Shown piece after piece: positions 2-53,016 of a stretch of DNA of 64,000 nt. The notes below the pieces were generated by a model. The model was not told where the DNA came from. It was given only the letters and a program-made list of their open reading frames with translations, and made no database searches. The DNA is from a virus. The translations under genes were made by a program, and so were the position numbers. Location: IMG/VR virus record IMGVR_UViG_3300042987_003796, positions 20,022-84,021 of that record. One strand, written 5' to 3'. Position 1 is the first letter of the stretch. Every line of letters begins with the position of its first letter.

Positions 2-655
2 ACCGCAGAAGAATATGCAGATAAGTATTATAATAGATATTATTTATATTATTCTTTATTTAAAGATAGGGAGTTTTCTGTTTACTTTGGTAAAAATGAA
101 GATTATTTTATAGAAATAGAAGACGAAATATATAACGATGTGTGGAATAGTGTTTTTAATGTTATTAATTTTCTTAAATTAGAAAATATAAAATATGTAG
201 CGGCGACTGGCTTTTTTCAGAATTTATTAATTTTAACTGGAAAAGAAATGTCGATAATAGACTTTTATGGAAAACCGATTCCGTCTTTAACTATTAATCA
301 AATTGATTTATTTTCTTATGCCGCAAGTTTTAGAAGATCTATAAATAATGCGACTGAGCAAATTCCGGATTATATACTTAGCGATCCGCTTAATTTGATA
401 GATTGGTGTGAGGGTGGAAATTCTTCATCTGTAAAAGCAAAGGGTATGATGGAAAGAACGCCAAATAAAAATAAAACAAAAGGCGAACGTAGCGGTAGAA
501 TAAGTTCTATTGTTGGAGCCAGTTCTTCAGATTATAAAAAACTTGGGGTAGGGGGCGTTGCGTCTGGAGGTTCGGATCTTATATCTGCCGCTGAAGAATC
601 GGGGGGAGAAATGGCTATAAATCAAATAATTAAAAAAACTGATAAATTAAAATAA
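2..655 (+). CDS. Unknown protein, 5'-truncated by window edge
   Basis: The frame is open from base 2, so the gene begins before the window; the GTG at 140 is internal. About 217 residues are visible. The first 120 are mixed and aromatic-rich. The C-terminal part is Ser/Gly/Lys-rich and low in complexity (residues such as SSIVGASSSDYKK and GGVASGGSD) and looks disordered. I recognise no family. It lies 68 bases upstream of the tape measure gene, where tail assembly chaperones often sit, but there is no direct sign of a chaperone or of a programmed frameshift. Confidence 0.7.
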   Translation, partial: TAEEYADKYYNRYYLYYSLFKDREFSVYFGKNEDYFIEIEDEIYNDVWNSVFNVINFLKLENIKYVAATGFFQNLLILTGKEMSIIDFYGKPIPSLTINQIDLFSYAASFRRSINNATEQIPDYILSDPLNLIDWCEGGNSSSVKAKGMMERTPNKNKTKGERSGRISSIVGASSSDYKKLGVGGVASGGSDLISAAEESGGEMAINQIIKKTDKLK

Positions 656-723: not shown

Positions 724-3700
724 ATGGCTGATAATTTGACTACGGCAACAATTGATGTAAGAGCAAACACAAGGGGCTTAGAAAAAGATATTCTAAAAGC
801 TCTTAAAACCGTTGAATTTTCTGAGATAAATACAAAGAAAAGTTCGCAGGCTCTTGGTAGAATAACTGGACAGGTTTCTGAATTTAATAAAAGCCTGGAA
901 GCGTCTAATGCTCGCGTAGTTGCTTTCGGTGCGTCTGCTGGGGCTATTTTTGCTGTCGAAAAAGCTTTTTCAAGCTTAATTTCTTCTACGATAGAGGTGC
1001 AGAAAAAACTTACAGATGTAAATATTCTTCTTAATTTATCTTCCTCTGGTTTGCAAAAATTTGGAGATAGCTTATTTGATATAGCTAAAAATACAGCTCA
1101 GTCTTTTTCTACTGTTGCAGACGCCGCTACCGAGCTTTCTCGTCAGGGTCTTGGCGTTGAAGAGACATTAAAAAGAACAAATGCCGCGTTAGTTTTGACT
1201 AGACTCAGCGGACTTGATGCAAAATCTAGCGTTGATGCGTTGACCGCTACATTAAACTCTTTTGCTGGGTCTGCGCTTGATGCGGTAGAGGTAGTTAATA
1301 AATTAGCAAACGTTGACGCCGCTTTTGCTGTTAGTTCTGCTGATCTTGCCAATGCTATTAGTCGCGTTGGTTCTACTGCTGTTGATGCTGGGGTATCCTT
1401 AGATGAATTAATTGCTTTAGTTACTTCTGCTCAACAAACTACGGCGAGAGGTGGAGCTGTAATTGGTAACTCTTTTAAAACTATTTTTACGCGTTTGCAA
1501 AGAGGAAAAGTTCAAGATTTGCTTGGCTCTCTTGGGGTCGATACAACAGAAGGACAAAGTGCGATAAGTTTATTACAACAACTTGCGGCAACTTATGATA
1601 CTCTTGGAGCGGCTCAAAAATCTTACGTTGCAGAGCAGGTTGGTGGCGTTTTCCAAATCAACATTTTAAAAGCAGCTTTATCTGATTTGGGTAAGGAGTA
1701 TAGTATTTTTGGAAGAGCTTTAGATACTTCATTAAGCTCAACAGATGAAGCTATTAGAAGAAATGAACTTTTAAATCAAACTATTTCTGCCTTATCTAGT
1801 CAAGCCGTTTCTGGATTGCAGCAGGCGGCGAGCAAAATCGGCTCTATTGTTTTTGAACCTAACGCAAAGGGTTTTCTTTCTGGTTTTAATAATTTATTAG
1901 ATTCTTTTAATAATATAGATGCAGAAAGCGCTGGTGGAAAGTTAATGACTGGATTTTTTAAGGGTATTGGTGACTTTATATCTGGTCCTGGAGCAGTTTT
2001 AGCTACCGCTGTTCTTGTAAAATTATTTTCCAATTTAGCAAAATTTGCAGCTGGGTCAGCAAAAGAATTACTTGGAACTAATAAAGCTGCACAACAACAG
2101 GCTGCTATAGAGCAAAGTATTTTAAGTATACTTCAAAAGAATAGTCAATTTACTAGTCAGATCTTGAGTGGTAAAATGACAACAGTTCAGGCAGAAAAGG
2201 AATTATTGACTTATTTAACTGCTCAATCAAATATCCTTAGGGAGCAGGAAAGATTAAGCAAAATTATTGGTGCAAATTTGATGACAGCTGGAGTTAGTAT
2301 TGGGTCAAGTGGTATTCCAATTGTAGCTGCATCAAAAGGTAAAAAGGCTGCTTCATCTGGATTTATACCAAACTTTGCATCAGATCAGGCGATTGGTCAG
2401 GCGATGGAGAATGCTGGAGCTAGACAGCATGGATACAAAGCTGGAAAAGCTAAAAAAACAACTATTCATGATGGTAATGGAAAATCATTCAAATCTTTTG
2501 TTAATAGCAAAGAGGATGTAAAAACTTTTACTAATTCCGCTGGCAAGAAAGCTACAATAGTTCGTCCTCCAAATGGGTTTGGTGAAAATACTCAATATGC
2601 TGCTGGTGGATTTGTTCCTAATTTTGCAAAAAATAAAAATGAAGATTCGATAAGAAAAGGTGTGTTGTTTGAAAAACGTTTGAATAAAGCCCTTAGTGGA
2701 TCTGCCTCGTTTTCTCCTAATGCTCCAATGGATTTTCCTCTCCCAACTGGTTATGGAAATGACTATGAGATAAGAAGAAAAATTGGAATTAGTGATGCTT
2801 CTATATATGGAGATGCAAAGCTTACTAGAAGTAGAAAAAGCGAACAGAGTTTATTAGACAAATATTTAAGAACGCCAGAGGGAGTTAAGGATTTTCTTTC
2901 AGCAAAAGAAACTTCTAGAGGGTTTATTAATTTAAATCCGAATGGATTATCAATGTTGTTTTCTGGGTCTGGATCTGATTCAAGGGGCATATCTTATATT
3001 TCCAGTATAAATACTCAGCTTTCTGCTGGCGCAAAACGTTTGATTAGTTCAAGATTTGGTAAAAATCATAAAAAAAGCAGAACATTGGCAATGCCTTATA
3101 TTGCTGATAAAATAAACGAAAAAAATTTATCTGGATTAAGTTCTGGTTTTATTCCTAATTTTGGAAAAATGCAAGATCTTTATAAAAATACGAAGATGCG
3201 CGAAGGAAAGGATGATCCTTTTGGCAAAAGAGCTGCTAAGGCTAATTTAGCAGCTAAAAAGGGTATTCCAATTAAAGATCTTGGAAACTTGCCATATACA
3301 ATGATTCACCCTGGTGGTGGTAGTAATTTTCAAGCCTCTGCTAGTTATACTAAAAAAGATAAAAAAACAAATTCTTCAACTCAATATGTTGGAAAAATAT
3401 GGACTGCTGGATTAGATGCAAGCAAGTTAAATCGTAAAACTGTTCAAGATAGAGTTGGAGATGCGCTAGTTACAGAAGCAAATAATTTAACAAAAATTTT
3501 CAATCCTTCTGGGAGTGGGCAATTTAGTAACTATAGTCAGTTGTCAAATACCGGATCTGTATTTAGTGCAGCTGGCACTGTTTTTGAGTCAGCGGTCAGA
3601 AAAGCGTTTAATGTTTCTGCTCAAGGTCAAGGAGATAGGATAGATTTTCCAAATCCATCCTCTGAGCTTAGATCTTTCTTTGGAAATGCTCCAGGACCTT

Positions 3701-6700
3701 ATGAGGCAAAAATTTCAAATGACGATACAAATAGGTCAAGTACTCTTTCTAAGTGGATAGCTGTAAATGGATTAAGTGGTGGATTTATTCCTAGCTTTGC
3801 TAATTCTAAGAATAGGCTGTCATTTTCTTATAAGGATAAAGATGAATTTGGAATTAGTGAAATTGAAGCTATAATGAGCGGTAAAAAAGTTGGTTCATTT
3901 AGTTATGCGGAAGATAGACCCGGAATAGTAGATGTTGGAGACCTTACAGTTAATAAAGGAGAAAGAGGAAAGGGTATAGGGAGCGCGCTTTATAAAGAAG
4001 CAATAAAAAGAAACGCCGGCAAAAAAATGAAGGGGCAATTATTGCCACAGATGAATCGCTTATTAGAGAAAATAAAAAAAGGCGAACCCGTTTCTGCTGA
4101 GACCTTATACCCACAAATAAAGAGAGCCGATCTTGCTAAAAGTTCTGTTTTTGAGGTTTATGGGCATAAGGGTTTAGAAGCAGAAAAAATGACGCGTGAT
4201 CAGTTTACGTCATTTGTTAATGCAAAAATTACGGAATTAAAAAAAGACCCGAAAAGATTGCAAAGCTATTTTGGAAATGTAGAAGCTGACGAGTATGGCG
4301 GACTTGGAGTGGATTTACAAACTCAACATTCTTCTGGATTTATTCCTAATTTTGCAAGCGGAATAATAACTGGAGACGTCATTCGGGGAAATGAATATAA
4401 AAGCGTTTTAGATTTTCTTGCAAAAACAAATAAACCTGTTAGAACTATTATTGGTCCGTCTGGCTCTGGAAAAACAACAATGGCTTCGAAAAGTGGCGGC
4501 TCTATTGTTAAGTCATTTAACGATTTAGCGGGATTTGATAGTTATATTCTTGATAGAGCTACGATGTCTATGCCAAAAGACGAAATAGTTTCAGAAAATT
4601 TAAAAAAGATATTTCGTAAATCTGGAGAAAGCGGCGCTTTAGATTTATTGGTTGGCTCTAGAAATACTATAAAATCTTTACGCGAAAAAAGGGCAAAAGA
4701 AGGAGACTCTTTAATTCCGGATAGAAAACAATTTACTTCTGGAAGTGGAGGTATTTCATCTTTTGTAAAGGGCGCTAGGGAATTTGCGTCTGAATATCCA
4801 GGAGCTTCTGTTTCTAGAATATTTAAAGATAAGTCTGAATATAAAACAAAAAAAATATTATCAGGGGGGTTTGTTCCCAACTTTGCTTCTCCAAAATTAA
4901 TAGAAGCTATAAATAAAAGAATTAAAAATCCAAACGTTGCCCAAAAGTTAAAAGAGGGAGCTGGCTTGAATGATTCTGCTTATATGAAAGCCGCGAGTAA
5001 GCTTGGAATAGATGTTGCTGGACTAGAGGCATTCCTGCCTCAGATGGGTTTTCCTTTGCGTGGAAAAGATAAGGTATTAAACTTATCAAAAGCTATTGGT
5101 TTTGGTTTTGGTAGATCTTTCATTATAGACGCTCTTAAGATGGGGGATTGGAATTATGTTAAGCCTCAATTTGAATCCGCTGGCTATGTGAAAGATGACT
5201 TTGATAAGTTATCTAAATATGCAAAAACGCCAAAAGGCGAATCTGCCTTAAAATGGTGGAGGTCTAAATCTAGCGGGTTTATTCCAAATTTTGCTTCTCC
5301 AAAGAAAAGCGGAAAGACTTTTAATAGTTACATGAGTAAGCCTTTATCTGATACTATCAGATTCGTGCATCCTCTTAAGCCAGTTATTGATTCAAGTGGT
5401 AATATATCTTTTCCTGGGCTTCCTAAAAAGGGCGCTAAAGCTACAATCATTCATGGGGAGGCAATGGCTGGGCAGGAAAGAATGACTCTCGATGAGTTTT
5501 ATGCGCTTGCTGAAAAAAGAAAGAACGATCCAAGATTCTGGGGTAGAAACTCTTTTGAGTATGTATATAATTCAGGAGGATTTGTTCCTAATTTTGCTGA
5601 CGCATTAAATAATGCAATAGCTAGAGAAAAGTCTTCTGGGTTGTCTAATAGTCAGATATATGTTGACCAGCATAGCTCTTTAAAGAATAAAAATAACCCA
5701 ATGGGTTTAATGGTTGCTAATACTAGGGATGAGCCAGGCGGTGGAATTCAGGGCATTAAAAGAGCTAAGAAAGAGGGAAAGAATCCAAAAACTTATGGAA
5801 CATCTTTTGGGTATGTGCCTAATTTTGCAACTGGACCGATACAACCGTCTCAAGATTACTTGAATGCCTTGAATGAGGCTGTTAAGGCGGTAGATAAGCT
5901 ATCGCAAAGTTCTAAAAAAGCATCTGAGGGTTTAAATCGAGCTTCTGATAGTGTTGAGAAATTTGATAACGGAGCTTCTGGGTCTGGCAAGGGAAAAATG
6001 GGTAAGATTGGTGGATTCCTTAAAGATAATGCTTTAACTGTAGGTTTTGGTTTGCAGTCTATAGCTAGTATGGCTGGTGAATACGCTGGAAATGACGATA
6101 CTAAATCTGGTCGCGCAATTAAGGCTGGAGCAGGCGCGGTTGGAGATATTGCTAGTTTTACAGGAACTGGGGCTATGATTGCTGGACCTTGGGGGGCTGC
6201 TGCTGGTTTCGCTGTAGGATTAGGAAAAGCTGCGCTTGATTTGTCAAAAGCCTTAACTACTAAAGTTCCAGATATGGAAAAAGCTCTTCAGACTAGCTCT
6301 GATGCAATGAATAGATTTGGTGAATCTGGTCAAAAGCTATTGCAACTTAATGAGCAATATGGTGACGCGTTAAATTCTGGAAATCCTGGTCAGGCTGCTG
6401 ATATAATGGTTAAAACTCAAAAGGCGTATGCGGAAGAGTTAAGTAAATTAACTCAAGCTCAAAGAGATTCATTTATTTCAGCAGTTGCTCAGGGTAAGGG
6501 GCAAGAAGAATATGCAAAAATCCTTGGCGAAATGCAGGATTCTGTTAGAGCCTCTGAGTCGGCTTTGTCTTTGCAAAAATTTAGTGAGAGCAAGGGCTTT
6601 TTTGGTGGACCTGATAAAAAACTTATATCTGGAATAGATAAAACTTTAGTTTCTGATTTGACAAAGGGTCTTGACGCAGATGCGATTAAAAAAGCTTTAG

Positions 6701-9700
6701 AAAATGCTTCCCCTGTTCTTACTGATAAGAGCGCGGGAACAGAAAATCAAGCTATTGCATTAATGAAAAGCCTAGCTCAGTCAGAGAGTCTTACAGTAGA
6801 TCAAAAAGCTAATTTTGAAAAGATTATTGATTCTTTTGCTTCTGCGGCGGCGCAAACAGATTTAGGAGCAGTTTCTGAGGCTTTCGTTGAAGGAATTCAG
6901 TTAAAGCCTAAATCATTTGAAGATGTTCAAAAAGCTCAAGAGGCGTATAAAAAATCCCAAGAAATAAACAATGCAAAAATAAAAGAAGAGATTGCTATTA
7001 GAGAAAAAGCAAATGCTTCTTTATTGCAGCTTCAATCTGAAACGGAAGCTATATATACTAGCTTCAATGATTCTCTTGAAAGATTTATTTCTAGTGTTGA
7101 AACAGCCGCAAAAATGCGAGCTGCGTCAGTAGAGTTCAAGCAAGAATTTTATTCTGAAGGCGGAGTTCCAAGCGCCGCTGAGTCGCAAAAAGAAAAAAAT
7201 ATAGTTCAGGCTTCGAGGGATAATTTGACGGTTGATATTTATAAATCTCAAGTTGAGGCTTCTAATAATTTTAATTCCGCTGTTAAGGATTTAGTTGGAG
7301 GTCTTGATATTGACATAGCAAAGCTTGGCGTCGGCGGTCAGTCGATGGATCAGCAGAATCAGCTGCTTGGCGTACAGTCTTCTATACAGAAAGCATTGTT
7401 GCCAATTCAGGGGATGATATTAAAGGGAGACTATGAAGGGGCAAGACAAAAAACAAGCGAGGCTCTTTCTGGATTAAAGCCAGAAGAAGTTAGTGCGGTT
7501 GGCGTTGACGCGATAACAAAAGTTGGTCAGCAATTAGATCAAACATTGCAGGATAGCGCTAGGAAATTAGATCAGATTAAACAAAATTCACAAAAAGATC
7601 TTGCTATTCAAGCTCAGCAATTAGTTTTTCAAAGAGCTATGTCTAAACTTAGTCAAGCTCAAGGCTTTGGTGGAACAGACATAAAAGGTTTAATTACAGA
7701 TAATGGAGGAGAGTCATTTCAGCAGGCTATTTCTTCTTTGAAAGATCTAAAAACGTTGGGATATAATCAAAAAGATTTGCAAAAGGGGTACGTAAAGGGC
7801 GGTGGAGCTGAAACATATGGAATAAAAGATAAAAAAGCTAATGCTGCGATGAGCGGAAAAGTTATTGATTTTTATGGAGCTGCCAGTAAAATAATCGGAA
7901 GTCCTGTTTTGTCTACCCAATCTAAGGATTTTGGCGCTTTAGCTCAAGCGGTCTCAGACCAGATAAGAAACCAGATGGATAAGTTCAAGGCTGCTGGAGA
8001 AGGCGTTGTTGACCCTGCTGTTTTTAGTAGAATGGAAAAAGCTCTTGCCACATTAGGTGGGGGAGATATGGTTGCTCAGTTAAAAATATTTAAAAATATT
8101 GGAGTTGCAGATGTTGGTGGAAAGCAAGTAATGGATGAAGCTTTAAAAACTTATAGCGGTGGTCAGTTTGCAAATTTGAGCCCAGAGCTTAAGAAGGCAT
8201 TTGAAAGCACTACAGATGAAGGGGCTGCTGCTACTTTATTATTAGTCGCTGTACAAGATAAGCAAACCCAAAGTCTAAATACAGGATTTAATTTTTTATC
8301 TGGCATTGGAGGGCAAACAAATGACTTATTGTCAAAACAACCGGACGCAATCGCTGCAGCAATAGGAGCGGTTTTAGAAAAAGGTAGAGCCGATTCTGAG
8401 GCGCAAAAAGTTAATCGAGAAGCTGCGTCGCTAGACAAGCAGTTCTTTGATAGTAAGGCTAAACTGAAAGAAGCTAATAAAGGCGTCGATTCAGCTCAAG
8501 CCCAAGTTGATTCTATTGTTGAATCTTTAGGTGGAAATGCTAGTGGATCATCTATTGAGGATTTTATTAAATCCATGCAGGTTAGTCAAAAAGATAAAGA
8601 TAAGGCTAAGTCTATAACGTCTTTAGGTAGGAATGAATATATTAATTATAAAACATCGCTGGAGATGACTCCAACAGAAATATTGTCAGGGTTACCAACT
8701 CCAAGGAGCGACAAAGCCAAACAAGAGTCGGCAAAAAAATATGACGAAGCTGTGGCTCTTCAAGAAAAAGTAAAAAAACTTGATGCATTGAAAGCCGCAT
8801 CTCAGCAGGTTAGTAGTAAAAAATCTGAAGCTGTAGGTATTTCTAATGAAATAAAAGAAATCAATAAAAAATATGATGCGCTTGCGCCAGATATTCAAGC
8901 TAAAAACGATGCCGCAAAAAAGGCTTCTGAAGTTGCTGCGCAAAGCAGAAATCTAGTTCTTGATAAGAAGCCATTGCAGGATTCTATGGATTATTACGCA
9001 AATGATAAAAAAGCTAGAGAGGCTGCTTTAGCTCAATCTTTGGCGACAGAAAATCTCAAAAAAACAAAACAGCAAAAACAAACTCTAGATAGAACGTCTG
9101 GGGCAGAAAAGGCTATGAGCCCTACTGGAAAGCTAGATACTTATGAAAATATAGCGATTACTAAAGCTGGCGGCGCAAACCAAGCTGCTTTCCAAGATTT
9201 ATTGTCTCAAATGGTTGTGCCGAGTTTTGATAAATTTAAAGATGTTTATGCGTCTCTTGGAGAAGAGGGTGGAGCAAAAGGCGCTTACGAAAGAACCATA
9301 AATGAAATGATTGGACCAGCTCTTTCCCAAAAGCTGCCAATTGTAGAATCTGGATCTCAAGGTCAGCAAATAGCTTCTGCTATTACAGAGGGCATTAAGC
9401 AAGCTTCCGCCTCAGTGGTTGGTGGAGGCATTACACGCGAAGAAAATAAATCGTTGATGAGCAAACATGGGTATGTTGAAGGAGAGGGTTGGAAAAATGA
9501 AAGCGGTAAGGCGGCTTATTCTGAAGAACTTAAAATGTTAAAAGAACAAAAGCAAGCTCAGCAGCAGTTGTCTTCACAGACTAGCGCAAATAATTTACAA
9601 AAAAATGCAGAGCAAGAGCAGGCGAAAAAACAAGAAAGCGAGAAAGCTAAAGCTCAATCTGCTCAGCAAGATCCTACTCAACTTATTTCGAGTATCCTGA

Positions 9701-9987
9701 CTACGGTTCAGCAAATTTCAACCGATCTTCAAAAAAAGGCGGCTGGAACAACGGAACAGCAACCCTCTCAGTCTGGTTCCGCTGGTGGGATAAGTGTAAG
9801 CGCGCCGGTATCATTTAGTGTAAATTCAACAGCCGGAGAAGGAAAAGATGCTGCGTCTGCGATTGCGGAACAAATAAAGGTGGGGCTATCTTCATTCTTG
9901 TCTTCTCCAGAATTTATAGGAAAAGTTACATCTATTGCTAACCAAGCTGCTGGAAATAAAACTCCTCCAACTTCACTTCCTAAGTAA
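724..9987 (+). CDS. Tail tape measure protein carrying an array of enzyme-like segments
   Basis: This 3,087-residue protein should set tail length and line the tail lumen. Residues about 60-360 resemble the TP901-type tape measure core (Ala/Ser-rich helices around SSVDALTATLNSFAGSA and TTARGGAVIGNSFKTIFTRL). From residue 546 to 1702 nine GFxPNFA motifs divide the protein into segments resembling PD-(D/E)XK nucleases, a GNAT acetyltransferase and a P-loop protein. A hydrophobic Gly/Ala-rich stretch at about 1800-1842 could insert in membranes. The remainder is Gln/Lys/Ala-rich and helical or coiled-coil. The start at 724 follows an AAAGG at 716-720. At the usual ~0.15 nm per helical residue the whole chain would span ~460 nm; discounting the segmented region gives ~290 nm (inference). 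The tape measure call is firm; the roles of the inserted segments are inferred. Confidence 0.92.
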   Translation: MADNLTTATIDVRANTRGLEKDILKALKTVEFSEINTKKSSQALGRITGQVSEFNKSLEASNARVVAFGASAGAIFAVEKAFSSLISSTIEVQKKLTDVNILLNLSSSGLQKFGDSLFDIAKNTAQSFSTVADAATELSRQGLGVEETLKRTNAALVLTRLSGLDAKSSVDALTATLNSFAGSALDAVEVVNKLANVDAAFAVSSADLANAISRVGSTAVDAGVSLDELIALVTSAQQTTARGGAVIGNSFKTIFTRLQRGKVQDLLGSLGVDTTEGQSAISLLQQLAATYDTLGAAQKSYVAEQVGGVFQINILKAALSDLGKEYSIFGRALDTSLSSTDEAIRRNELLNQTISALSSQAVSGLQQAASKIGSIVFEPNAKGFLSGFNNLLDSFNNIDAESAGGKLMTGFFKGIGDFISGPGAVLATAVLVKLFSNLAKFAAGSAKELLGTNKAAQQQAAIEQSILSILQKNSQFTSQILSGKMTTVQAEKELLTYLTAQSNILREQERLSKIIGANLMTAGVSIGSSGIPIVAASKGKKAASSGFIPNFASDQAIGQAMENAGARQHGYKAGKAKKTTIHDGNGKSFKSFVNSKEDVKTFTNSAGKKATIVRPPNGFGENTQYAAGGFVPNFAKNKNEDSIRKGVLFEKRLNKALSGSASFSPNAPMDFPLPTGYGNDYEIRRKIGISDASIYGDAKLTRSRKSEQSLLDKYLRTPEGVKDFLSAKETSRGFINLNPNGLSMLFSGSGSDSRGISYISSINTQLSAGAKRLISSRFGKNHKKSRTLAMPYIADKINEKNLSGLSSGFIPNFGKMQDLYKNTKMREGKDDPFGKRAAKANLAAKKGIPIKDLGNLPYTMIHPGGGSNFQASASYTKKDKKTNSSTQYVGKIWTAGLDASKLNRKTVQDRVGDALVTEANNLTKIFNPSGSGQFSNYSQLSNTGSVFSAAGTVFESAVRKAFNVSAQGQGDRIDFPNPSSELRSFFGNAPGPYEAKISNDDTNRSSTLSKWIAVNGLSGGFIPSFANSKNRLSFSYKDKDEFGISEIEAIMSGKKVGSFSYAEDRPGIVDVGDLTVNKGERGKGIGSALYKEAIKRNAGKKMKGQLLPQMNRLLEKIKKGEPVSAETLYPQIKRADLAKSSVFEVYGHKGLEAEKMTRDQFTSFVNAKITELKKDPKRLQSYFGNVEADEYGGLGVDLQTQHSSGFIPNFASGIITGDVIRGNEYKSVLDFLAKTNKPVRTIIGPSGSGKTTMASKSGGSIVKSFNDLAGFDSYILDRATMSMPKDEIVSENLKKIFRKSGESGALDLLVGSRNTIKSLREKRAKEGDSLIPDRKQFTSGSGGISSFVKGAREFASEYPGASVSRIFKDKSEYKTKKILSGGFVPNFASPKLIEAINKRIKNPNVAQKLKEGAGLNDSAYMKAASKLGIDVAGLEAFLPQMGFPLRGKDKVLNLSKAIGFGFGRSFIIDALKMGDWNYVKPQFESAGYVKDDFDKLSKYAKTPKGESALKWWRSKSSGFIPNFASPKKSGKTFNSYMSKPLSDTIRFVHPLKPVIDSSGNISFPGLPKKGAKATIIHGEAMAGQERMTLDEFYALAEKRKNDPRFWGRNSFEYVYNSGGFVPNFADALNNAIAREKSSGLSNSQIYVDQHSSLKNKNNPMGLMVANTRDEPGGGIQGIKRAKKEGKNPKTYGTSFGYVPNFATGPIQPSQDYLNALNEAVKAVDKLSQSSKKASEGLNRASDSVEKFDNGASGSGKGKMGKIGGFLKDNALTVGFGLQSIASMAGEYAGNDDTKSGRAIKAGAGAVGDIASFTGTGAMIAGPWGAAAGFAVGLGKAALDLSKALTTKVPDMEKALQTSSDAMNRFGESGQKLLQLNEQYGDALNSGNPGQAADIMVKTQKAYAEELSKLTQAQRDSFISAVAQGKGQEEYAKILGEMQDSVRASESALSLQKFSESKGFFGGPDKKLISGIDKTLVSDLTKGLDADAIKKALENASPVLTDKSAGTENQAIALMKSLAQSESLTVDQKANFEKIIDSFASAAAQTDLGAVSEAFVEGIQLKPKSFEDVQKAQEAYKKSQEINNAKIKEEIAIREKANASLLQLQSETEAIYTSFNDSLERFISSVETAAKMRAASVEFKQEFYSEGGVPSAAESQKEKNIVQASRDNLTVDIYKSQVEASNNFNSAVKDLVGGLDIDIAKLGVGGQSMDQQNQLLGVQSSIQKALLPIQGMILKGDYEGARQKTSEALSGLKPEEVSAVGVDAITKVGQQLDQTLQDSARKLDQIKQNSQKDLAIQAQQLVFQRAMSKLSQAQGFGGTDIKGLITDNGGESFQQAISSLKDLKTLGYNQKDLQKGYVKGGGAETYGIKDKKANAAMSGKVIDFYGAASKIIGSPVLSTQSKDFGALAQAVSDQIRNQMDKFKAAGEGVVDPAVFSRMEKALATLGGGDMVAQLKIFKNIGVADVGGKQVMDEALKTYSGGQFANLSPELKKAFESTTDEGAAATLLLVAVQDKQTQSLNTGFNFLSGIGGQTNDLLSKQPDAIAAAIGAVLEKGRADSEAQKVNREAASLDKQFFDSKAKLKEANKGVDSAQAQVDSIVESLGGNASGSSIEDFIKSMQVSQKDKDKAKSITSLGRNEYINYKTSLEMTPTEILSGLPTPRSDKAKQESAKKYDEAVALQEKVKKLDALKAASQQVSSKKSEAVGISNEIKEINKKYDALAPDIQAKNDAAKKASEVAAQSRNLVLDKKPLQDSMDYYANDKKAREAALAQSLATENLKKTKQQKQTLDRTSGAEKAMSPTGKLDTYENIAITKAGGANQAAFQDLLSQMVVPSFDKFKDVYASLGEEGGAKGAYERTINEMIGPALSQKLPIVESGSQGQQIASAITEGIKQASASVVGGGITREENKSLMSKHGYVEGEGWKNESGKAAYSEELKMLKEQKQAQQQLSSQTSANNLQKNAEQEQAKKQESEKAKAQSAQQDPTQLISSILTTVQQISTDLQKKAAGTTEQQPSQSGSAGGISVSAPVSFSVNSTAGEGKDAASAIAEQIKVGLSSFLSSPEFIGKVTSIANQAAGNKTPPTSLPK
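2629..3144 (+). other. Tape measure segment 2: possible PD-(D/E)XK nuclease domain
   Basis: This lies between repeats 2 and 3 (residues 636-807). It starts with a helix containing GVLFEKRLNKAL (E650), then MDFP (D670), then GDAKLT (D697, K699). That is the E...D...(D/E)xK order of restriction-endonuclease-like folds. The same pattern recurs in the next segment. This is a motif reading only, with no fold search. Confidence 0.4.
3166..3780 (+). other. Tape measure segment 3: possible PD-(D/E)XK nuclease domain
   Basis: Residues 815-1019. The second half has GTVFESAVRKAF (E955), RIDFP (D974) and PYEAKIS (E994, K996), giving D-x19-E-x-K, a good match to a PD-(D/E)XK core. The first half has a distinct unknown region around MIHPGGGSNF. 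The similarity of order to segment 2 suggests divergent copies of one domain. Confidence 0.45.
3802..4335 (+). other. Tape measure segment 4: GNAT acetyltransferase-like domain
   Basis: Residues 1027-1204. The stretch VGDLTVNKGERGKGIGSALY contains the GNAT motif A, RGxGxG at 1081-1086, after a strand, as in acetyl-CoA-binding N-acetyltransferases. EAIMSGKKVGSFSY upstream resembles the preceding GNAT strands, and SSVFEVYGHKGLEAEKM near the end resembles the final GNAT beta-alpha unit. Enzymatic activity is not proven. Confidence 0.6.
4357..4866 (+). other. Tape measure segment 5: P-loop kinase/NTPase-like domain
   Basis: Residues 1212-1381. RTIIGPSGSGKTTMA is a clear Walker A motif (G1244 to T1251, K1250) after a hydrophobic strand. 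FDSYILDRA downstream may be a Walker B-like strand. The size of about 170 residues suits a small kinase of the zeta-toxin or polynucleotide-kinase type, but no specific family can be assigned. Confidence 0.5.
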
Positions 9988-9993
9988 TATTCT

Positions 9994-11643
9994 ATGAATT
10001 TTAGTAATGTAAAAGTTTTAAGCTACGAGCACAAAAATAACTTTTGGGGTGATAAAGCTTTTAGATATGGTTCTACTATTTCAATATCGATAAATGGATA
10101 TATTCTTGATTTATCCAATACTTCTGGCGTTAAGGATATTTTTCAGTCTTGCAAAAATTTATCAGACTCTTTGGGTGCTTATCAGGATATAGTTATTGAT
10201 AATGTTAATTATGGTAAGGGTAAAATAACAAACGTCTCTTTTGATTCGGGAAACTGGGTTAAGGTTACAGAGTATACTGCCTCTATAGAAATAGTTGGAG
10301 ATGGAAATCTTGGTTCTGTTAATTTTACAGATTTAGATTTTTCTAATCAAGTTATTAATGATATTAAATCAAACATTCAATATGTAGAAGAATTTAATGA
10401 GAGTTATTCTATAGACTACTCTTCTGATCAAGATTCGGTTTCTGGGGTTCATTCTATAGATTTAAAAATTTCTACTTTGTTTTCTGGAGATAAAATTAAT
10501 TTTGCAAAAAATTTAGCGTCGGCTCTTTTTTCTAAAACATTTTCCGAGAATTTATCTAAAATAACTTATTCAAAACCTTCTGAAAACTTAAGAAAAGATT
10601 TTTACTCAGAGAATTATGATTCTATAAGTGGCGCATGTGGATTCAAAAGAAGCTTTTCATATTCTAACGATTCTTCTTGTTTTAGCAGGAATAGATCTAT
10701 TTCTGTAAATTTTGGAGAAGATGGGATAACTACTGTTAGTGAATCAAATACTATAAAAGGCGAATGCATGAATGCGTCTCTTTTTGATTCGGCGGAATCT
10801 GGATTTTCTTCTGAGATTTCTGGCGTTTTTTCTCGCTGTAATGCTGCGTTTACAACTTATCAGACTCAGTTTGGATCGGTTGATCCTTTAATTAATAAGG
10901 AGATTGAAAGGTCGGTGAAAAGAAATAGATTTACTGGAGAAATAGAATATACAATATCTTTTACAAATGATAAGCGTAGAAAAAATTTATATACTTTTGA
11001 GTATGTTCTAGACTTGTCTAGATCTGAGGATTTTATATGGAGCGCCGTTGAAAATGGATCCGTGAAAGGCGATGGGATTGTGGGATCTACGGATAGATTT
11101 AATAATGCTTTGAATGGATGGAATACTGAAAAAGCAGGAATAAGTGCTAGGGTTCAATCTTTTTATACCTCTAATGCAAAAATAAAACCTATACCATCTG
11201 TATTAAATTTAATTAATAAAAATATAACTCACGCACCTTTTGAGGGATTAATATCTTATTCTTATAATTATACAGACGATTCTACACTTGATATGTCTAG
11301 CGCAATAAGAAGAAAAAGTATTAATATTACAGACTCTAAAGCTACAAGGATTCATAATGATTTTTTAATACCTGGGGGCGTGGTTAAATATGCAATCGCT
11401 CAAGCGGCTAACCAGTCAAAACAAGGGGAGAGGGAGGTAGCTGGATCTTTAGAAATATCTAGCTCCACTTTGCCATTTAAGGGCAATGATTATTTTCAGG
11501 AATGTGTAAATTTAGCTTCTTCTAATAAGGGGACTGGGACAGATTTATATTTAGAATCTTTTTCTTTTTCCTCCGACGAAATAGAGCAAAATGTAGAATT
11601 TAATGGAAAATATAAATATTCATCAGCTGCCAGTAGCAGTTAG
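9994..11643 (+). CDS. Tail structural protein, beta-rich, paralogue of next gene
   Basis: A 549-residue Ser/Asn/Tyr-rich protein typical of virion beta-structure, starting 6 bases after the tape measure stop. The N-terminus has a W-G...I-S-I-x-G strand pattern shared with the next gene. Repeated modules follow that end in strands like FTGEIEYTISFTND and FEGLISYSYNYTDD. These match FNSKISYSASWSD and SSEISFSINYDDD in the next protein, so the two genes are probably a duplication. Position between tape measure and hub suggests a distal tail or baseplate component; the exact role is unknown. Confidence 0.75.
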   Translation: MNFSNVKVLSYEHKNNFWGDKAFRYGSTISISINGYILDLSNTSGVKDIFQSCKNLSDSLGAYQDIVIDNVNYGKGKITNVSFDSGNWVKVTEYTASIEIVGDGNLGSVNFTDLDFSNQVINDIKSNIQYVEEFNESYSIDYSSDQDSVSGVHSIDLKISTLFSGDKINFAKNLASALFSKTFSENLSKITYSKPSENLRKDFYSENYDSISGACGFKRSFSYSNDSSCFSRNRSISVNFGEDGITTVSESNTIKGECMNASLFDSAESGFSSEISGVFSRCNAAFTTYQTQFGSVDPLINKEIERSVKRNRFTGEIEYTISFTNDKRRKNLYTFEYVLDLSRSEDFIWSAVENGSVKGDGIVGSTDRFNNALNGWNTEKAGISARVQSFYTSNAKIKPIPSVLNLINKNITHAPFEGLISYSYNYTDDSTLDMSSAIRRKSINITDSKATRIHNDFLIPGGVVKYAIAQAANQSKQGEREVAGSLEISSSTLPFKGNDYFQECVNLASSNKGTGTDLYLESFSFSSDEIEQNVEFNGKYKYSSAASSS

Positions 11644-11674
11644 TGTATAAATTTATATAAAGGTAATTTAAAGG

Positions 11675-13297
11675 ATGCAAGGACAAGTTAAAATATTATA
11701 TGGAAATTTGGATATATTTTCAGGAATATGTCCTACTCCTTTTGCTTACTTTGATAAAGAGTATATAGAAAATGGATCTGTTTGGGGTTCTAAATATAAT
11801 TTAAAATTAGATGGTCAGATAACCGGAAGGCTTGGGCCGGCTGCTTTTTATGACTTAGAAAATAAAAAAAATAAACTTATTTCTGGATTTAAAAATGATA
11901 GTTTATCAATAAAAATAACGGAGGACAGTGTTGATGTTTTTAATTCTGATATATGCCAGGTAGATTCTATTTCTTTTGAAGAGTCTAAATATTATGCGTT
12001 GCTACCCTTTTCTATATCGGCTTCTTGTTATGATAAAAGCTCTTTTGGGCAAAACTATGGGGTAACCAACCCTCAAGACTCTTGGGAATATTCAGAAAAT
12101 GAAGATGGTACTTTATCTTTGAGGCATTCTGTTTCTGCCGATGGATTTAATATCTCAGGCGCGTCTGCTATTTCTCAAGCTAAAAAGTGGGCTTTATCTA
12201 AAACAGGAATAAGCAATAGAGTAAGCTCTTTAAAATTTAATAATGTTTCCGCCGGTGATTTTATTCTTGATTCTTTTTCTGAACAAGTTGATAGATTTAA
12301 TGGTAAATATTCTATCGAAGAAGTTTATAAAGCTGATTTGCTTAAAACTAATTCTTTTGGAAATGGTATACTTAGATATACAGTTGATGTATCAAAAAAT
12401 ATAGAAAATGGAATTTCGGATGTTTCTATTCAGGGAAGCGTAGTCGGAAAAACAAATATTGGACTAGCTGATATGTCTGTATTGAGGGCTAAAATGAATG
12501 CAGAGAATTTTTTTCAAATTGCTGCTGAAGCCGCCTCAAAATCTACGGGTACAACAAAAATAAATGATAAGCCATACTCTAGAAGCGTCACAGAAAATCA
12601 AAATTCATCAGAGATATCTTTTTCGATAAACTATGACGATGATCCTGTTGCTCCTGGAACTGCAAAATGCATATATAAAGTAGATCTTTCTGAGAATTTA
12701 ATAAAAAATATAGTTGATATAAAGATAGACGCCGAAATTTTATGCGAGAGGGGGGACGCTTCTGTTAGGTGGAATGCCGTTAAAACTTATTACTCTAATA
12801 CGTTCAATGGATATGACTTAGCTTTAAAAGAATATAAAAGAGCTGGATATTCTAAATCTTTTAGTTCTACCCCAAAAACAGAGTCAATCAATTTTGACGA
12901 ATTTAATAGTAAAATATCATATTCTGCAAGTTGGAGCGATAGATATATGCCTTATCCAGATATTTTGACATCTATTTCTGAAAAGGTAAATATAACTCCA
13001 TCATTGAAGGTGTATGCGGTCCAGCCTTCGTTATATACAAATGGGGCGCATAATGTTCAAGATTTTGGGTGCGCAAATAGGGCTTCTGTTTCGATATCAA
13101 TAGAAGCAACGTGTAGGCCAGATAAAACAATTTCAGAATTAAAAAATTGCGTTTCTTCTGAGCTTTCTAGGCTTCGCTCTATTTATGTAAAAAATATAAA
13201 TTTATTTACAGACGAGGCAAGTGAGTCAGTAAACGAAAAACTTAAAAGAATGTCGGTTTCTTATAGTTATTCTTTTGATGGAGATATTGTTTCATAA
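11675..13297 (+). CDS. Tail structural protein, beta-rich, paralogue of previous gene
   Basis: A 540-residue Ser/Asn-rich protein with the same architecture as the preceding one. The N-terminal domain includes GSVWGSKYNLKLDGQITG. Repeated modules of about 90-130 residues end in IS(Y/F)S strands followed by a D-rich turn. An AAAGG directly precedes the ATG. Cysteines recur at similar places in the modules. It is likely a tail-tip or baseplate protein on the basis of context; I do not recognise a named family. Confidence 0.72.
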   Translation: MQGQVKILYGNLDIFSGICPTPFAYFDKEYIENGSVWGSKYNLKLDGQITGRLGPAAFYDLENKKNKLISGFKNDSLSIKITEDSVDVFNSDICQVDSISFEESKYYALLPFSISASCYDKSSFGQNYGVTNPQDSWEYSENEDGTLSLRHSVSADGFNISGASAISQAKKWALSKTGISNRVSSLKFNNVSAGDFILDSFSEQVDRFNGKYSIEEVYKADLLKTNSFGNGILRYTVDVSKNIENGISDVSIQGSVVGKTNIGLADMSVLRAKMNAENFFQIAAEAASKSTGTTKINDKPYSRSVTENQNSSEISFSINYDDDPVAPGTAKCIYKVDLSENLIKNIVDIKIDAEILCERGDASVRWNAVKTYYSNTFNGYDLALKEYKRAGYSKSFSSTPKTESINFDEFNSKISYSASWSDRYMPYPDILTSISEKVNITPSLKVYAVQPSLYTNGAHNVQDFGCANRASVSISIEATCRPDKTISELKNCVSSELSRLRSIYVKNINLFTDEASESVNEKLKRMSVSYSYSFDGDIVS

Positions 13298-13303
13298 TTA
13301 TAT

Positions 13304-15265
13304 ATGTCATCTATTAATTCTTCTGGCTTTAAATATAGACTCGATTCATTAGGTATAACTAGTGAATCATTGCTTGTTGCATATGATTTTGTTTCTGGAT
13401 CTAATTTTCAGCAAGGTTTTTTAAATACTCCCCCATGGGTTACTGGCTCGACGTTTAGTGGAAAACTTAATGGAATTTATAGTAATTTTTATACAAAATC
13501 TGGAAGCGGTTATTTTAATGGGTTTAATTCTGTTTCAATCTCTGGAAAAATTCCAGAAGACGATTTTACTTTTTTATTTTGCTATGAAAAACAAAGAACG
13601 GGCGAAGAAATTTTATTGAGTTCTGCGGCCGGAGGCTCTTTTGCTTCTGCATCTGGATTGACTGTTGGAATTAATGACGCAAATAAGCTTTATTTAGAAT
13701 ACTGGAGCCCAGTAGTAGGAAAGAAAACTTTAGATTATACAGATAATATAAGCTCTAAAAATTTAGTTTTCTTTAGCAAGACATTTGATGAATTTCAATT
13801 AGGTATTTTTGATCCAATTGGCGGAGATTTATCTTTTTCTTCAGCTTCAATAGATCAAATCGAGGGATATTCTCACTCTGATTCTTTTATAATTGGGGCA
13901 AATAACTCGTCTTCTTACTGGTCTAAAGGCAGGTCTTTTAATGGATATTTTGATGATTTTTATTGTATAAGTGGTAAAAAACCGAACGACTATTTTATAG
14001 AGCTTTTTAGCGGATTTTATTCGATTCCTGTAACTGGATTGATAAGTGGTCAATATCAGGTATGTAATTATGTTTCTGTTATGAGTGGTAGCGGGGTCAA
14101 TCTAGGAACTGGGATAACGGGATATGAAACTAGGGTTACATATACTACCGGATACGTTCCAACTGGCTGTTTTAATAGTGGATACTCTTATCTTGTTGGA
14201 ACTGGAATTACTGGTTATGAGGAAAGACTTATTGGGACTCAAAAAGATGCTTGTGATCAAGACGTGCCTATATATGTAAGAACAGCGTTAACTGGAAATA
14301 TTTATGCAACTGGTTATACTTATGCCTGTAGCGGATCTGGTCAAGTAATAACGCCAACCTATACAAATTATCCATTGACCGGAATGTTAACTGGTCAAGT
14401 TTTTGTTGAGGTTCTTTCTGGTATTTGTTCTAATTTTACTGGCTATTATCCAGATGGTCTTCAATTAGATTCAGGCTTTCTATCGTCTCTCGGATTTGAT
14501 TCTGTATATTTGCTTAATCAATGCAGCAATATTGTTACGCATGAATGTTTTTTACATACTGGTGGATTTGCATCTAATAATATAAATTTAACTCCGTCTT
14601 TTGATTTAGTAGCAAATGACTGGATTATTCCAAATATTCACTCTGGCTCAGGAAAAAATTTATTTTTTAATAATGGACAGTTAATGCTAGAAAGTGGGTG
14701 GTCGTCTTATCAGGAAAAAGGTGTGACAAAATATAATATAACGGGAAATATTTTTTTGGACGGCAATATTATTAGGTCAAATGGAGACTGCAGCTTAGAA
14801 GATTCTATTATATATGATAACTCAAATTTTATTAGCGGCGTATCTGTTTATCTTTTAACCGGATTAGGGTCTTCTGCTAGTTTTAATTCTATTTTGAATT
14901 CTAGTTATCAAGATTTTTCCATTTTTCTAAATGGAGTCAAAATGACTAGTGGATTTGATTATTTTAATTCTAATTTTATTTTTAATGTGCCGCCTTCTTC
15001 TGTTTTAACTAAGGTTAATAATAATTATATTTCTGATGGTGCAAAATATATAACTGGATCTGGTAATCTTTTAACGCTGGGATCTAATGGCTCGTCTTCT
15101 TTTTTAAAAAAATCTTCTCAAGTTTATTTAAACGGCTTGAGACAATTGATAAATAGCGACTATTTTGAAATTTCTAGATTCTCTATTTTAAGTGGCTGTC
15201 CAGCTCAAGAAGTAAGCAATAACCAACTAGTATATTCTTTTAATGAAGAGTTTTGGAATATTTAA
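13304..15265 (+). CDS. Virion protein with LamG/concanavalin-like domain
   Basis: A 653-residue protein. Residues about 25-220 have the pattern of a LamG-type jelly roll: LLVAYDFVSGS, FTFLFCYEK, LTVGINDANKLYLEYW, then SDSFIIGANNS and FNGYFDDFYCISG at the end. The middle carries two copies of GTGITGYE (encoded near 14107 and 14200) in a Gly/Thr/Tyr-rich, Cys-containing region. The C-terminus is Ser/Asn-rich with FLNGVKMTSGFDYF and YLNGLRQLINSDYF, a twice-repeated fibre-like module. It probably sits at the tail tip and may bind glycans (inference). Confidence 0.65.
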   Translation: MSSINSSGFKYRLDSLGITSESLLVAYDFVSGSNFQQGFLNTPPWVTGSTFSGKLNGIYSNFYTKSGSGYFNGFNSVSISGKIPEDDFTFLFCYEKQRTGEEILLSSAAGGSFASASGLTVGINDANKLYLEYWSPVVGKKTLDYTDNISSKNLVFFSKTFDEFQLGIFDPIGGDLSFSSASIDQIEGYSHSDSFIIGANNSSSYWSKGRSFNGYFDDFYCISGKKPNDYFIELFSGFYSIPVTGLISGQYQVCNYVSVMSGSGVNLGTGITGYETRVTYTTGYVPTGCFNSGYSYLVGTGITGYEERLIGTQKDACDQDVPIYVRTALTGNIYATGYTYACSGSGQVITPTYTNYPLTGMLTGQVFVEVLSGICSNFTGYYPDGLQLDSGFLSSLGFDSVYLLNQCSNIVTHECFLHTGGFASNNINLTPSFDLVANDWIIPNIHSGSGKNLFFNNGQLMLESGWSSYQEKGVTKYNITGNIFLDGNIIRSNGDCSLEDSIIYDNSNFISGVSVYLLTGLGSSASFNSILNSSYQDFSIFLNGVKMTSGFDYFNSNFIFNVPPSSVLTKVNNNYISDGAKYITGSGNLLTLGSNGSSSFLKKSSQVYLNGLRQLINSDYFEISRFSILSGCPAQEVSNNQLVYSFNEEFWNI

Positions 15266-15291
15266 TTAAATTTTAATATAATAAAAGCAAT

Positions 15292-17709: not shown

Positions 17710-17714
17710 ATTTT

Positions 17715-18845
17715 ATGATACTTTCTAGCGGCGATATATTTAAAAGTTTTGCAGAACAAAGATGTTTTTCTTTTGATTGTGACTTATCAATAAAAACCTC
17801 TACTGGCATTTCTAAGATTTTAGCTTCAGGTGAGACATCTTCAGTTTCATTATTCTCTTTTAAGAGTGGTAGGATTTTTGATTGTTTTAATCGATTCGTA
17901 AAATCTTATTCTCCATCTGAGTCCATTAATATTTCTGGAAACTTTTGTAGCGGTATTTTTGGATACTATATAGATCAATATCCTGTTTGTTTAAATTCTA
18001 ATGTTTCTACTTCTACTTCTTCTTTTGAAAATTTAGTTTTTTCAACTAGCGGATCTGAAATTGAATTTTTTGTTGATATTTTTGGAGAGGTTAAGCCTAA
18101 ATATGAATTGGTATTTCCAAGTCAGAGTCAAGTCACGGGTAGTCCTATAACTGGTTTTTTAAAAAATACTTCTTCGAATGCGTTTCAGAGTTTTAAACTT
18201 TTCTCTGGGTCTTCGTATTTTCCTGGGGCTGATTATAATATATCATCTACAGTACAGGGACTTAAAATAAAGCCAAATAATTCTGGACAAATAGTGTTAT
18301 CTTTTTCTGGCGGTACATCTTTTTCTTTAGACTCTAATAAGCAGGCTTTGCCTATATATGGAAATTTATATTTGGATACAAATTTTGGAAGCATTGATAT
18401 TCCAGTAAGTATACCATTAAAATCTTCTCCTTTTTATTATATAGATTTTCAAGAAGATTCTAACATACAATACGGTGAGACAGGAAAATTTTGGTCTTTC
18501 GAATTAGAAAGACAAGCTTGTTCTGGAACTAGATTTGAATTTATTTTAGATGACGTGAGGTGGCTTGATCCATATAATTCATTTTCAGATAAGTTTTTTA
18601 TAAAAACTGGTTATAATAATGGAGCTTTTCTTTCATCCTCTGTTCCATACAATATAGCAAGAGGTATTTATGCTGCAACTGGATATATTTCTGGAGCTGG
18701 TTGCTCTGGAGACGACACGTTTAATGTTAGATTTGAAATACTCCACTCTCATCCTAGTGGAATATATGCAAATAAATTTAAATATTCTATAAGCGGAATA
18801 GAGGAAAAATTTTTGTTTTCTGGGTTTTTAGAAGAAGGTTTATGA
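17715..18845 (+). CDS. Unknown tail-module protein
   Basis: A 376-residue Ser/Phe/Gly-rich beta protein without recognised motifs, 5 bases after the hub gene. Composition matches its virion neighbours. Strands such as GNLYLDTNFGSIDIPVSIPL and an aromatic C-terminus (KFKYSISGIEEKFLFSGF) suggest a structural role. Confidence 0.6.
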   Translation: MILSSGDIFKSFAEQRCFSFDCDLSIKTSTGISKILASGETSSVSLFSFKSGRIFDCFNRFVKSYSPSESINISGNFCSGIFGYYIDQYPVCLNSNVSTSTSSFENLVFSTSGSEIEFFVDIFGEVKPKYELVFPSQSQVTGSPITGFLKNTSSNAFQSFKLFSGSSYFPGADYNISSTVQGLKIKPNNSGQIVLSFSGGTSFSLDSNKQALPIYGNLYLDTNFGSIDIPVSIPLKSSPFYYIDFQEDSNIQYGETGKFWSFELERQACSGTRFEFILDDVRWLDPYNSFSDKFFIKTGYNNGAFLSSSVPYNIARGIYAATGYISGAGCSGDDTFNVRFEILHSHPSGIYANKFKYSISGIEEKFLFSGFLEEGL

Positions 18846-52974: not shown

Positions 52975-53016
52975 CTTTATATATAAATAATTTAATTATT
53001 AGAGATAATATAAATT

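What the first reader, a model, noticed from the sequence alone, without database searches (positions are those of the whole stretch)
2359..5829. Tape measure protein built as a string of different domains separated by nine GFxPNFA motifs
Seen: nine near-identical heptapeptides cut residues 546-1702 into eight unlike segments of 70-205 residues. Several segments carry enzyme motifs. Known: tape measure proteins sit inside the tail and pass into or toward the host on infection. Inferred: the tape measure doubles as a carrier that delivers a cargo of effector or enzyme domains into the cell. The motif could be a cleavage site that frees them, or a docking peptide that packs them along the tail lumen.
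Basis: partly seen in the sequence, partly recalled or inferred. Interest (0 to 1): 0.93.

Follow-up and report, generated by a model that had tools for sequence, protein, structure and literature searches.

The report
Phage tape measure carrying swappable enzymes
In this uncultured phage, and in about 150 other viral fragments, the protein that sets tail length holds a string of interchangeable enzyme-like domains, each fenced off by the same seven-residue motif, which suggests that the tail delivers a modular enzyme payload into the bacterium along with or before the DNA.

Summary
In detail: nine G[FY]xP[NS]F motifs cut residues 546-1702 of a 3087-aa tape measure protein (TMP) into eight unlike segments (shuffles give 0.0025). 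Of 156 motif-bearing viral ORFs, 98 of the 99 with an intact N-terminus share this TMP N-terminus. The first motif comes after about 549±29 aa; the block spans 298-1675 aa. Homology breaks fall on motifs (79% within 10 aa with motifs masked; 17.5% expected). Usual plan: First module, nuclease-like module, optional extras (acetyltransferase, kinase, HAD, HExxH, SNase, nucleotidyltransferase), Last module. Catalytic residues are conserved; dN/dS is 0.02-0.21. Hydrophobic segments flank the block, as around the loop predicted cytoplasmic in TP901-1. Best reading: a modular enzyme cargo carried in the tail and exposed to the host cytoplasm at infection. Delivery and activity are inferred. The motif acts as a peptide; docking or cleavage is undecided. 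The motif was not found described in the open-access library searched, nor any cargo relative in cultured phages. Host unknown.

The parts
724..9987 (+). Tape measure protein gene, 3087 aa
   Evidence: TIGR01760 1.7e-26; PF10145 9e-24; phrog_4211 1.6e-40
724..2358 (+). Constant TP901-type TMP N-terminal region (aa 1-545); length nearly invariant in relatives
   Evidence: 98 of 99 motif ORFs with an intact N-terminus are homologous here; 34 of 35 match TMP PHROGs; mean length 549 +/- 29 aa in 72 complete TMPs
1975..2031 (+). Hydrophobic segment before the cargo (aa 418-436, FISGPGAVLATAVLVKLFS)
   Evidence: Kyte-Doolittle 1.63; the 200 aa before the first motif exceed 1.3 in 73 of 74 complete TMPs
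2359..2379 (+). Motif 1 GFIPNFA
2380..2607 (+). Segment 1, 'First' module (76 aa), conserved type
   Evidence: 81-97% identical in L001-L005; family of 86 segments, 84 of them first in order
2608..2628 (+). Motif 2 GFVPNFA
2629..3144 (+). Segment 2 (172 aa), nuclease-type signature GxxFE...D...GDAK; replaced by other content in the five closest relatives
3145..3165 (+). Motif 3 GFIPNFG
3166..3780 (+). Segment 3 (205 aa), core nuclease-like module: invariant G, E, D, [DE]xK and K; AF2 pLDDT 87.5
   Evidence: 45 aligned sequences at 13-57% identity keep G144 E148 D167 K189 K203, numbered from the motif start; model; no fold match
3781..3801 (+). Motif 4 GFIPSFA
3802..4335 (+). Segment 4 (178 aa), GNAT acetyltransferase plus extension
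   Evidence: PF00583 22.2 bits, cut-off 20.7; RGxG conserved
4336..4356 (+). Motif 5 GFIPNFA
4357..4866 (+). Segment 5 (170 aa), P-loop kinase-like: GPSGSGKTT plus conserved R109, R112, D117
   Evidence: dN/dS 0.06 against L001
4867..4887 (+). Motif 6 GFVPNFA
4888..5274 (+). Segment 6 (129 aa), unknown module, recurs in L001, L028, L042, L077
5275..5295 (+). Motif 7 GFIPNFA
5296..5577 (+). Segment 7 (94 aa), unknown, no relative in the collected loci
5578..5598 (+). Motif 8 GFVPNFA
5599..5808 (+). Segment 8, 'Last' module (70 aa), invariant R-E, G, L, NPxGL, V, N
   Evidence: found in 148 TMP ORFs; alignment
5809..5829 (+). Motif 9 GYVPNFA
5830..9984 (+). C-terminal (ruler) region of the TMP
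   Evidence: C-terminal part is 1350-1520 aa in six close relatives while the motif block ranges 752-1587 aa
6169..6225 (+). Glycine-rich hydrophobic segment after the cargo (aa 1816-1834, GAMIAGPWGAAAGFAVGLG)
   Evidence: Kyte-Doolittle 1.22 in the window; the 220 aa after the last motif exceed 1.3 in 62 of 74 complete TMPs, the cargo in only 8 of 74
2..655 (+). Conserved gene directly upstream of the TMP (start lies outside the window); position of the tail assembly chaperone
   Evidence: the same family lies directly upstream of the TMP in 67 of the complete loci; identity as chaperone is inferred from position

Best explanation
The residue 546-1702 block is a modular enzyme cargo built into a TP901-type tape measure protein. 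SHOWN by sequence: (1) each module is bounded on both sides by a G[FY][IV]PN[FY]A peptide in a linker rich in small residues; (2) the block always follows the constant N-terminal ~549 aa, and hydrophobic segments lie on both sides; (3) whole modules are exchanged between phages at the motifs; (4) modules carry conserved enzyme signatures under purifying selection; (5) the common minimum is First + nuclease-like + Last, and extras are added between. INFERRED: the TMP is packed in the tail lumen with the modules strung out, held at the motifs by a constant partner (tail assembly chaperone or tube). On infection the TMP is ejected and its hydrophobic regions enter the inner membrane. The loop between them, predicted to be cytoplasmic in TP901-1, puts the enzymes into the host cytoplasm before or with the DNA, where they would disable defences or start takeover. 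The motif is probably a docking/spacer peptide (about 0.5), possibly a processing site that frees the modules (about 0.3).
For: Motif block at a fixed place, with N and C parts steady while the block varies. Motif tied to the TMP: 98 of 99 ORFs, 34 of 35 TMP PHROGs, confined to one gene in the whole record. Exchange at motifs: 86% of homology ends within 10 aa of a motif in six close relatives and 79% in 46 TMPs, against 17.5% at random, with motifs masked; GNAT and kinase order swapped in L003; a metallopeptidase-like and a HAD-like module lie between two motifs in L005 and are absent in L002, which is 94% identical upstream. Catalytic residues kept: nuclease-like in 45 sequences, HAD, protein-kinase-like and SNase alignments, Pfam GNAT and SNase above cut-off. 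dN/dS 0.016-0.21. dS differs between modules of one pair (0.26 to 1.68), as expected if modules have separate histories. Hydrophobic flanks and TP901-type head match TP901-1, where the loop between the hydrophobic regions is predicted cytoplasmic (PMC5099701). Precedent: Tme, a TMP-related nuclease effector of a contractile injection system (PMC11126660).
Against: No experiment shows that any module is in the virion, is ejected, or is active. The nuclease-like module matched no fold in PDB or BFVD and no related PDB sequence, so 'nuclease' rests on the residue signature alone. Most modules have no Pfam match. The C-terminus of a TMP lies at the tail tip, so a cargo near the N-terminus would leave late. 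A folded 200-aa domain is hard to fit in a tail lumen, so the modules would have to be unfolded or strung out and refold. The downstream hydrophobic segment of the window itself is weak (1.22).
Confidence: 0.68

Rival explanations
1. The modules are enzymes that stay at the envelope: they help the TMP channel open or handle the DNA during passage, as the membrane-associated nuclease EndA does in DNA uptake, and are not released as cytoplasmic effectors.
For: Hydrophobic segments flank the block; the nuclease-like module is nearly universal, 69 of 74 complete TMPs, as expected of a core entry function; Tme stays membrane-associated (PMC11126660).
Against: The extras (acetyltransferase, kinase-like, HAD, nucleotidyltransferase, protein-kinase-like) belong to families that use cytoplasmic cofactors, and fast exchange looks like an arms race rather than a fixed entry step.
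Confidence: 0.13
2. The motif is a proteolytic processing site: a protease cuts the string into free effectors before or after ejection. (This rivals the docking reading of the motif and is compatible with cargo delivery.)
For: One short peptide is repeated exactly at each module boundary and is conserved as peptide, with synonymous codons nearly free (57.6% against 51.2% codon identity); small residues surround it. A protease-like gene is present in the record (phrog_20754 1.2e-14), and an HExxH module occurs in some strings.
Against: No protease family is recognisable among the genes shared next to the TMP; the conserved neighbours are mainly upstream tail-region genes (judged by position and eye, not annotated). 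The HExxH module is absent from the window and from most TMPs. The motif also precedes the first module and follows the last, where cutting would detach the ruler.
Confidence: 0.3
3. The modules are not delivered: they are inert filling of the tail lumen, or act in the producing cell late in infection as a by-product of TMP synthesis.
For: The TMP is expected to be made late; no delivery evidence exists; the motif block can double in length without change of the flanks.
Against: Conserved active sites and dN/dS of 0.016-0.21 speak against inert filler, and fusion to the one protein known to be ejected is odd for an enzyme meant to act in the old host.
Confidence: 0.12
4. The motif is only a DNA-level recombination hot spot or a plain linker with no function as a peptide.
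For: Module exchange happens at the motif.
Against: Synonymous positions of motif copies vary nearly as freely as random codons of the same residue, while the peptide is held across about 150 contigs; a plain linker would not keep it.
Confidence: 0.04

Closest known systems
TP901-1-type siphophage tape measure proteins (TIGR01760; PMC5099701)
   Same: Homologous N-terminal domain, hydrophobic segments, conserved gene at the chaperone position upstream, long C-terminal region.
   Different: TP901-1 has 129 aa between its two hydrophobic regions and W/F 11- or 18-residue repeats; here that place holds about 300-1675 aa of motif-bounded enzyme-like modules.
Tape measure proteins with a cell-wall or peptidase domain (T5 pb2, mycobacteriophage TM4)
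   Same: Enzyme domain inside a TMP.
   Different: Those carry a single envelope-opening domain (named in PMC11445458 and PMC13277306). Here up to 11 modules with intracellular-type enzyme signatures, exchanged and separated by a fixed motif.
Polyvalent proteins (Iyer et al. 2017, PMC5512222)
   Same: Long multidomain proteins with many predicted enzymes aimed at host or defence, thought to enter with the DNA.
   Different: Those are capsid- or conjugation-delivered and are not described as TMPs ('tape measure' has 0 occurrences in that paper); no delimiting motif was seen in the passages read.
Tme and Sle1, TMP-related effectors of contractile injection systems (PMC11126660, PMC13277306)
   Same: TMP-derived protein in a tail-like particle that carries an effector; in Tme a tested endonuclease.
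   Different: One C-terminal domain, in a bacterial injection machine; here many internal modules in a phage.
MuF and other polymorphic toxins
   Same: Constant delivery part with a variable enzymatic part made by recombination.
   Different: Polymorphic toxins vary one C-terminal domain; here several internal modules vary with constant ends, and each boundary bears the motif.

Membership tests
TP901-type tape measure protein | N-terminal TMP domain above curated cut-off | tested here: met
   TIGR01760 93.1 bits against 28.8; PF10145 84.9 against 33.2
TP901-type tape measure protein | Hydrophobic segments after the N-terminal domain | tested here: met
   aa 418-436 (1.63) and weaker aa 1816-1834 (1.22)
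TP901-type tape measure protein | Gene lies behind a conserved gene at the tail assembly chaperone position | tested here: met
   same family directly upstream in 67 complete loci, window included; frameshift and chaperone identity not examined
TP901-type tape measure protein | Protein present in tail lumen and length-determining | not testable with these tools
   needs virions and mutants
Polyvalent proteins | Several different predicted enzyme domains in one polypeptide | tested here: met
   window; relatives
Polyvalent proteins | Packed in the head or transferred with DNA by conjugation | tested here: not met
   the carrier is a tail protein by family
Polymorphic toxins / CIS effectors (Tme) | Variable toxin domain at the C-terminus | tested here: not met
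   variable modules are internal; the last module is conserved and a long C-terminal region follows
Polymorphic toxins / CIS effectors (Tme) | DUF4157 domain (Tme type) | tested here: not met
   no such Pfam match in the window TMP
PD-(D/E)XK nucleases (segment 3) | Active-site E...D...[DE]xK | tested here: met
   E, D and K invariant in 45 diverse sequences
PD-(D/E)XK nucleases (segment 3) | Restriction-endonuclease-like fold | tested here: not met
   confident model (pLDDT 87.5) has no significant match in PDB or BFVD; so not filed as a member
GNAT acetyltransferases (segment 4) | Profile match above cut-off and [RQ]xxGxG-type motif | tested here: met
   PF00583 22.2 against 20.7 bits; RGxG invariant

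The most novel reading that the evidence does not exclude
A general payload system in uncultured tailed phages: a fixed seven-residue address peptide lets any enzyme module be slotted into the tape measure protein, so the tail delivers a mixed, fast-evolving set of enzymes into the host cytoplasm before the genome.
Probability: 0.5. Interest if true: 0.93.

Novelty: new variant of a known kind. Interest (0 to 1): 0.84.

Why it matters
Tape measure proteins are seen as rulers and DNA channels, at most with one cell-wall enzyme. A 2023 survey of phage protein mosaicism reported mosaic signals in TMPs but could not confirm genuine recent cases (PMC10684548); the L002/L005 and window/L001 pairs are such cases. 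If the cargo is delivered, phages have a route for enzymes that needs no gene expression in the new host, which bears on how they beat defences that act in the first minutes. The motif-bounded slot would also be a natural design for loading proteins into tails.

Tried and rejected
(1) AF2 of the whole cargo with five sequences: failed, pLDDT 31; not used. A combined alignment with fragments was tested first and discarded because MAFFT misplaced the fragments. (2) Foldseek of segment 3 in PDB and BFVD, and a profile search of PDB sequences: nothing significant. (3) Cargo or Last module in cultured phages by tblastn: no match; the N-terminus alone matches TMPs of Bacillus and other phages at about 24-28% identity. 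(4) Hosts through bacterial genomes: two contigs only; host not assigned. (5) Stand-alone copies of the window's modules in the collected loci: none, apart from the Last module in three large ORFs without the strict motif. (6) PADLOC: only a weak mad3 match at the P-loop segment, not used. (7) Motif as a chance DNA pattern: about ten of the stretches found are chance hits in short frames; the rest lie in long TMP-like ORFs. (8) Motif as a regular helical repeat: rejected, spacing mostly ranges from about 60 to 490 aa. (9) Motif strings in the open-access library: two papers, on dementia and lymphoma, no phage paper.
Full report
OBSERVATION. The ORF at 724-9987 (+) is 3087 aa. Nine G[FY]xP[NS]F motifs lie at residues 546 to 1696 and bound eight segments of 70-205 aa. 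Shuffled versions of the protein give 0.0025 matches on average. In the whole virus record (84,021 bases; the window is 20022-84021) the motif is found only in this gene. The ORF is a TP901-type tape measure protein by NCBIfam, Pfam and PHROGs.

CONTENT OF THE WINDOW SEGMENTS. Segment 4 is a GNAT acetyltransferase by Pfam. Segment 5 has a Walker A P-loop and conserved arginines. Segments 2 and 3 have an E...D...[DE]xK signature. Segments 1 and 8 are conserved module types that occur first and last in most such proteins. Segments 6 and 7 are unknown.

RELATIVES: THE MOTIF STAYS, THE CONTENT CHANGES. Five phages with a near-identical TMP N-terminus (81-96% to the window) carry 6 to 10 motifs with other content. 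Examples: L001 has a HAD-like module and an extra segment; L003 has kinase and GNAT in swapped order; L004 has an HExxH module and a P-loop plus nucleotidyltransferase module; L005 has HExxH and HAD between GNAT and Last, where L002, 94% identical up to that point, has nothing.

HOW WIDE. A second scan with the Last module gave 80 more loci. After removing duplicates there are 156 motif ORFs, 76 of them complete. Of 99 with an intact N-terminus, 98 are homologous to window residues 1-545, and 34 of 35 diverse N-termini match TMP PHROGs. These sets were found by motif or Last module, so they say that the motif implies this TMP, not how many TMPs of this type have the motif.

ARCHITECTURE. The first motif follows about 549 +/- 29 aa. 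The motif block is 298-1675 aa and the C-terminal part 1269 +/- 274 aa (72 complete proteins). In the six close relatives, window included, N is 537-545, C 1350-1520, and the block 752-1587 aa. Of 74 complete proteins, 69 contain a nuclease-like module and 31 distinct module orders occur; the commonest is First - nuclease-like - Last. 506 segments fall into 103 clusters. Enzyme signatures among the extras include HAD (DWDGT, TxRP, K, vDd), HExxH, SNase (Pfam above cut-off), a nucleotidyltransferase, a protein-kinase-like module (VGVKKF, DLHGSNY, DPG), a GHKL ATPase and PcfJ.

EXCHANGE AT THE MOTIF. With motifs masked so that they cannot attract alignments, 79% of homology ends inside the block lie within 10 aa of a motif, against 17.5% for random places; in the six close relatives 86%. 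The pairs are not independent, so no p-value is given. Modules of one pair (window/L001) differ in synonymous divergence from 0.26 to 1.68, as expected if they have separate histories.

SELECTION. dN/dS of modules is 0.016-0.21. In 45 diverse copies of the segment 3 family (13-57% identity to the window) G144, E148, D167, K189 and K203 are invariant. The modules are therefore maintained as working proteins; which reaction they catalyse is not shown. The AF2 model of segment 3 is confident (pLDDT 87.5; the motif at its start about 50) but matched nothing in PDB or BFVD, so I call it nuclease-like by signature only.

THE MOTIF. G, P and N were fixed by the search pattern, but the F over Y, I/V, and A preferences and the small residues before it (A or S at -2) emerge from the set. 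Synonymous codons of copies in one gene agree in 57.6%, against 51.2% for random codons of the same residue: the peptide is kept, not the DNA. Its partner is unknown. A gene family directly upstream, at the tail assembly chaperone position, is shared by 67 complete loci and is my first candidate. I recognised no protease family shared next to the TMP.

MECHANISM. Strong hydrophobic segments lie about 104 aa before the first motif in most proteins, and hydropathy peaks above 1.3 occur within 220 aa after the last motif in 62 of 74; the block itself has one in only 8 of 74. [quoted passage not shown] The N-terminus of siphophage TMPs is thought to face the head and the C-terminus the tail tip, and JBD30 has a TMP trimer in the tail (PMC5099701, PMC11445458). 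So I infer: about three copies per particle, packed as a string, ejected, inserted in the membrane, with the module loop in the cytoplasm. Packing and all later steps are inference.

COMPARISON. Polyvalent proteins are the nearest idea but are head- or conjugation-borne (PMC5512222). Tme and Sle1 are TMP-related effectors of bacterial injection machines. Smug et al. 2023 saw mosaic signals in TMPs but could not confirm recent genuine cases (PMC10684548). The motif strings were not found in any phage paper of the library searched; subscription papers and preprints are not held, so prior description cannot be excluded.

VERDICT. Real, widespread in environmental viral contigs, unnamed as far as searched; modular cargo in a TMP is well supported, delivery and activity are not tested.

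Noticed in passing
window 52519-52977 (+): A full tmRNA gene in the phage (ARAGORN, tag EAEYILNNADEFLGSVEEESYALAA; Rfam RF00023 119 bits, gathering 47). Three of five related phage records also have one.
   Followed up: partly
L145 (TMP of 4792 aa), L146 (12 motifs), L141 and L143 (PcfJ-like module): Far larger motif strings than in the window; most of their modules have no Pfam match.
   Followed up: partly
L151 ORF from base 2 (about 5081 aa) and L159 ORF from 6746 (2988 aa): Very large ORFs hold the Last module but lack the exact motif pattern, perhaps a diverged form of the motif in larger phages.
   Followed up: no
L036 4091-7756 (-): A GHKL (HSP90-like) ATPase domain with an HExxH sequence inside a tape measure protein.
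   Followed up: no
window 19450-20688 (-): Glycosyltransferase with a near full-length PHROG match (phrog_24687, 2e-181), on the opposite strand behind the tail genes.
   Followed up: no
window 9994-18845 (+): Five large proteins behind the TMP, expected to be tail tip or fibre proteins, have no PHROG match at 0.001.
   Followed up: no
L209 381-1592 (window record G000, bases 381-1592): Protease-like gene (phrog_20754, 1.2e-14) in the upstream part of the record; a candidate if the motif proves to be cleaved.
   Followed up: no
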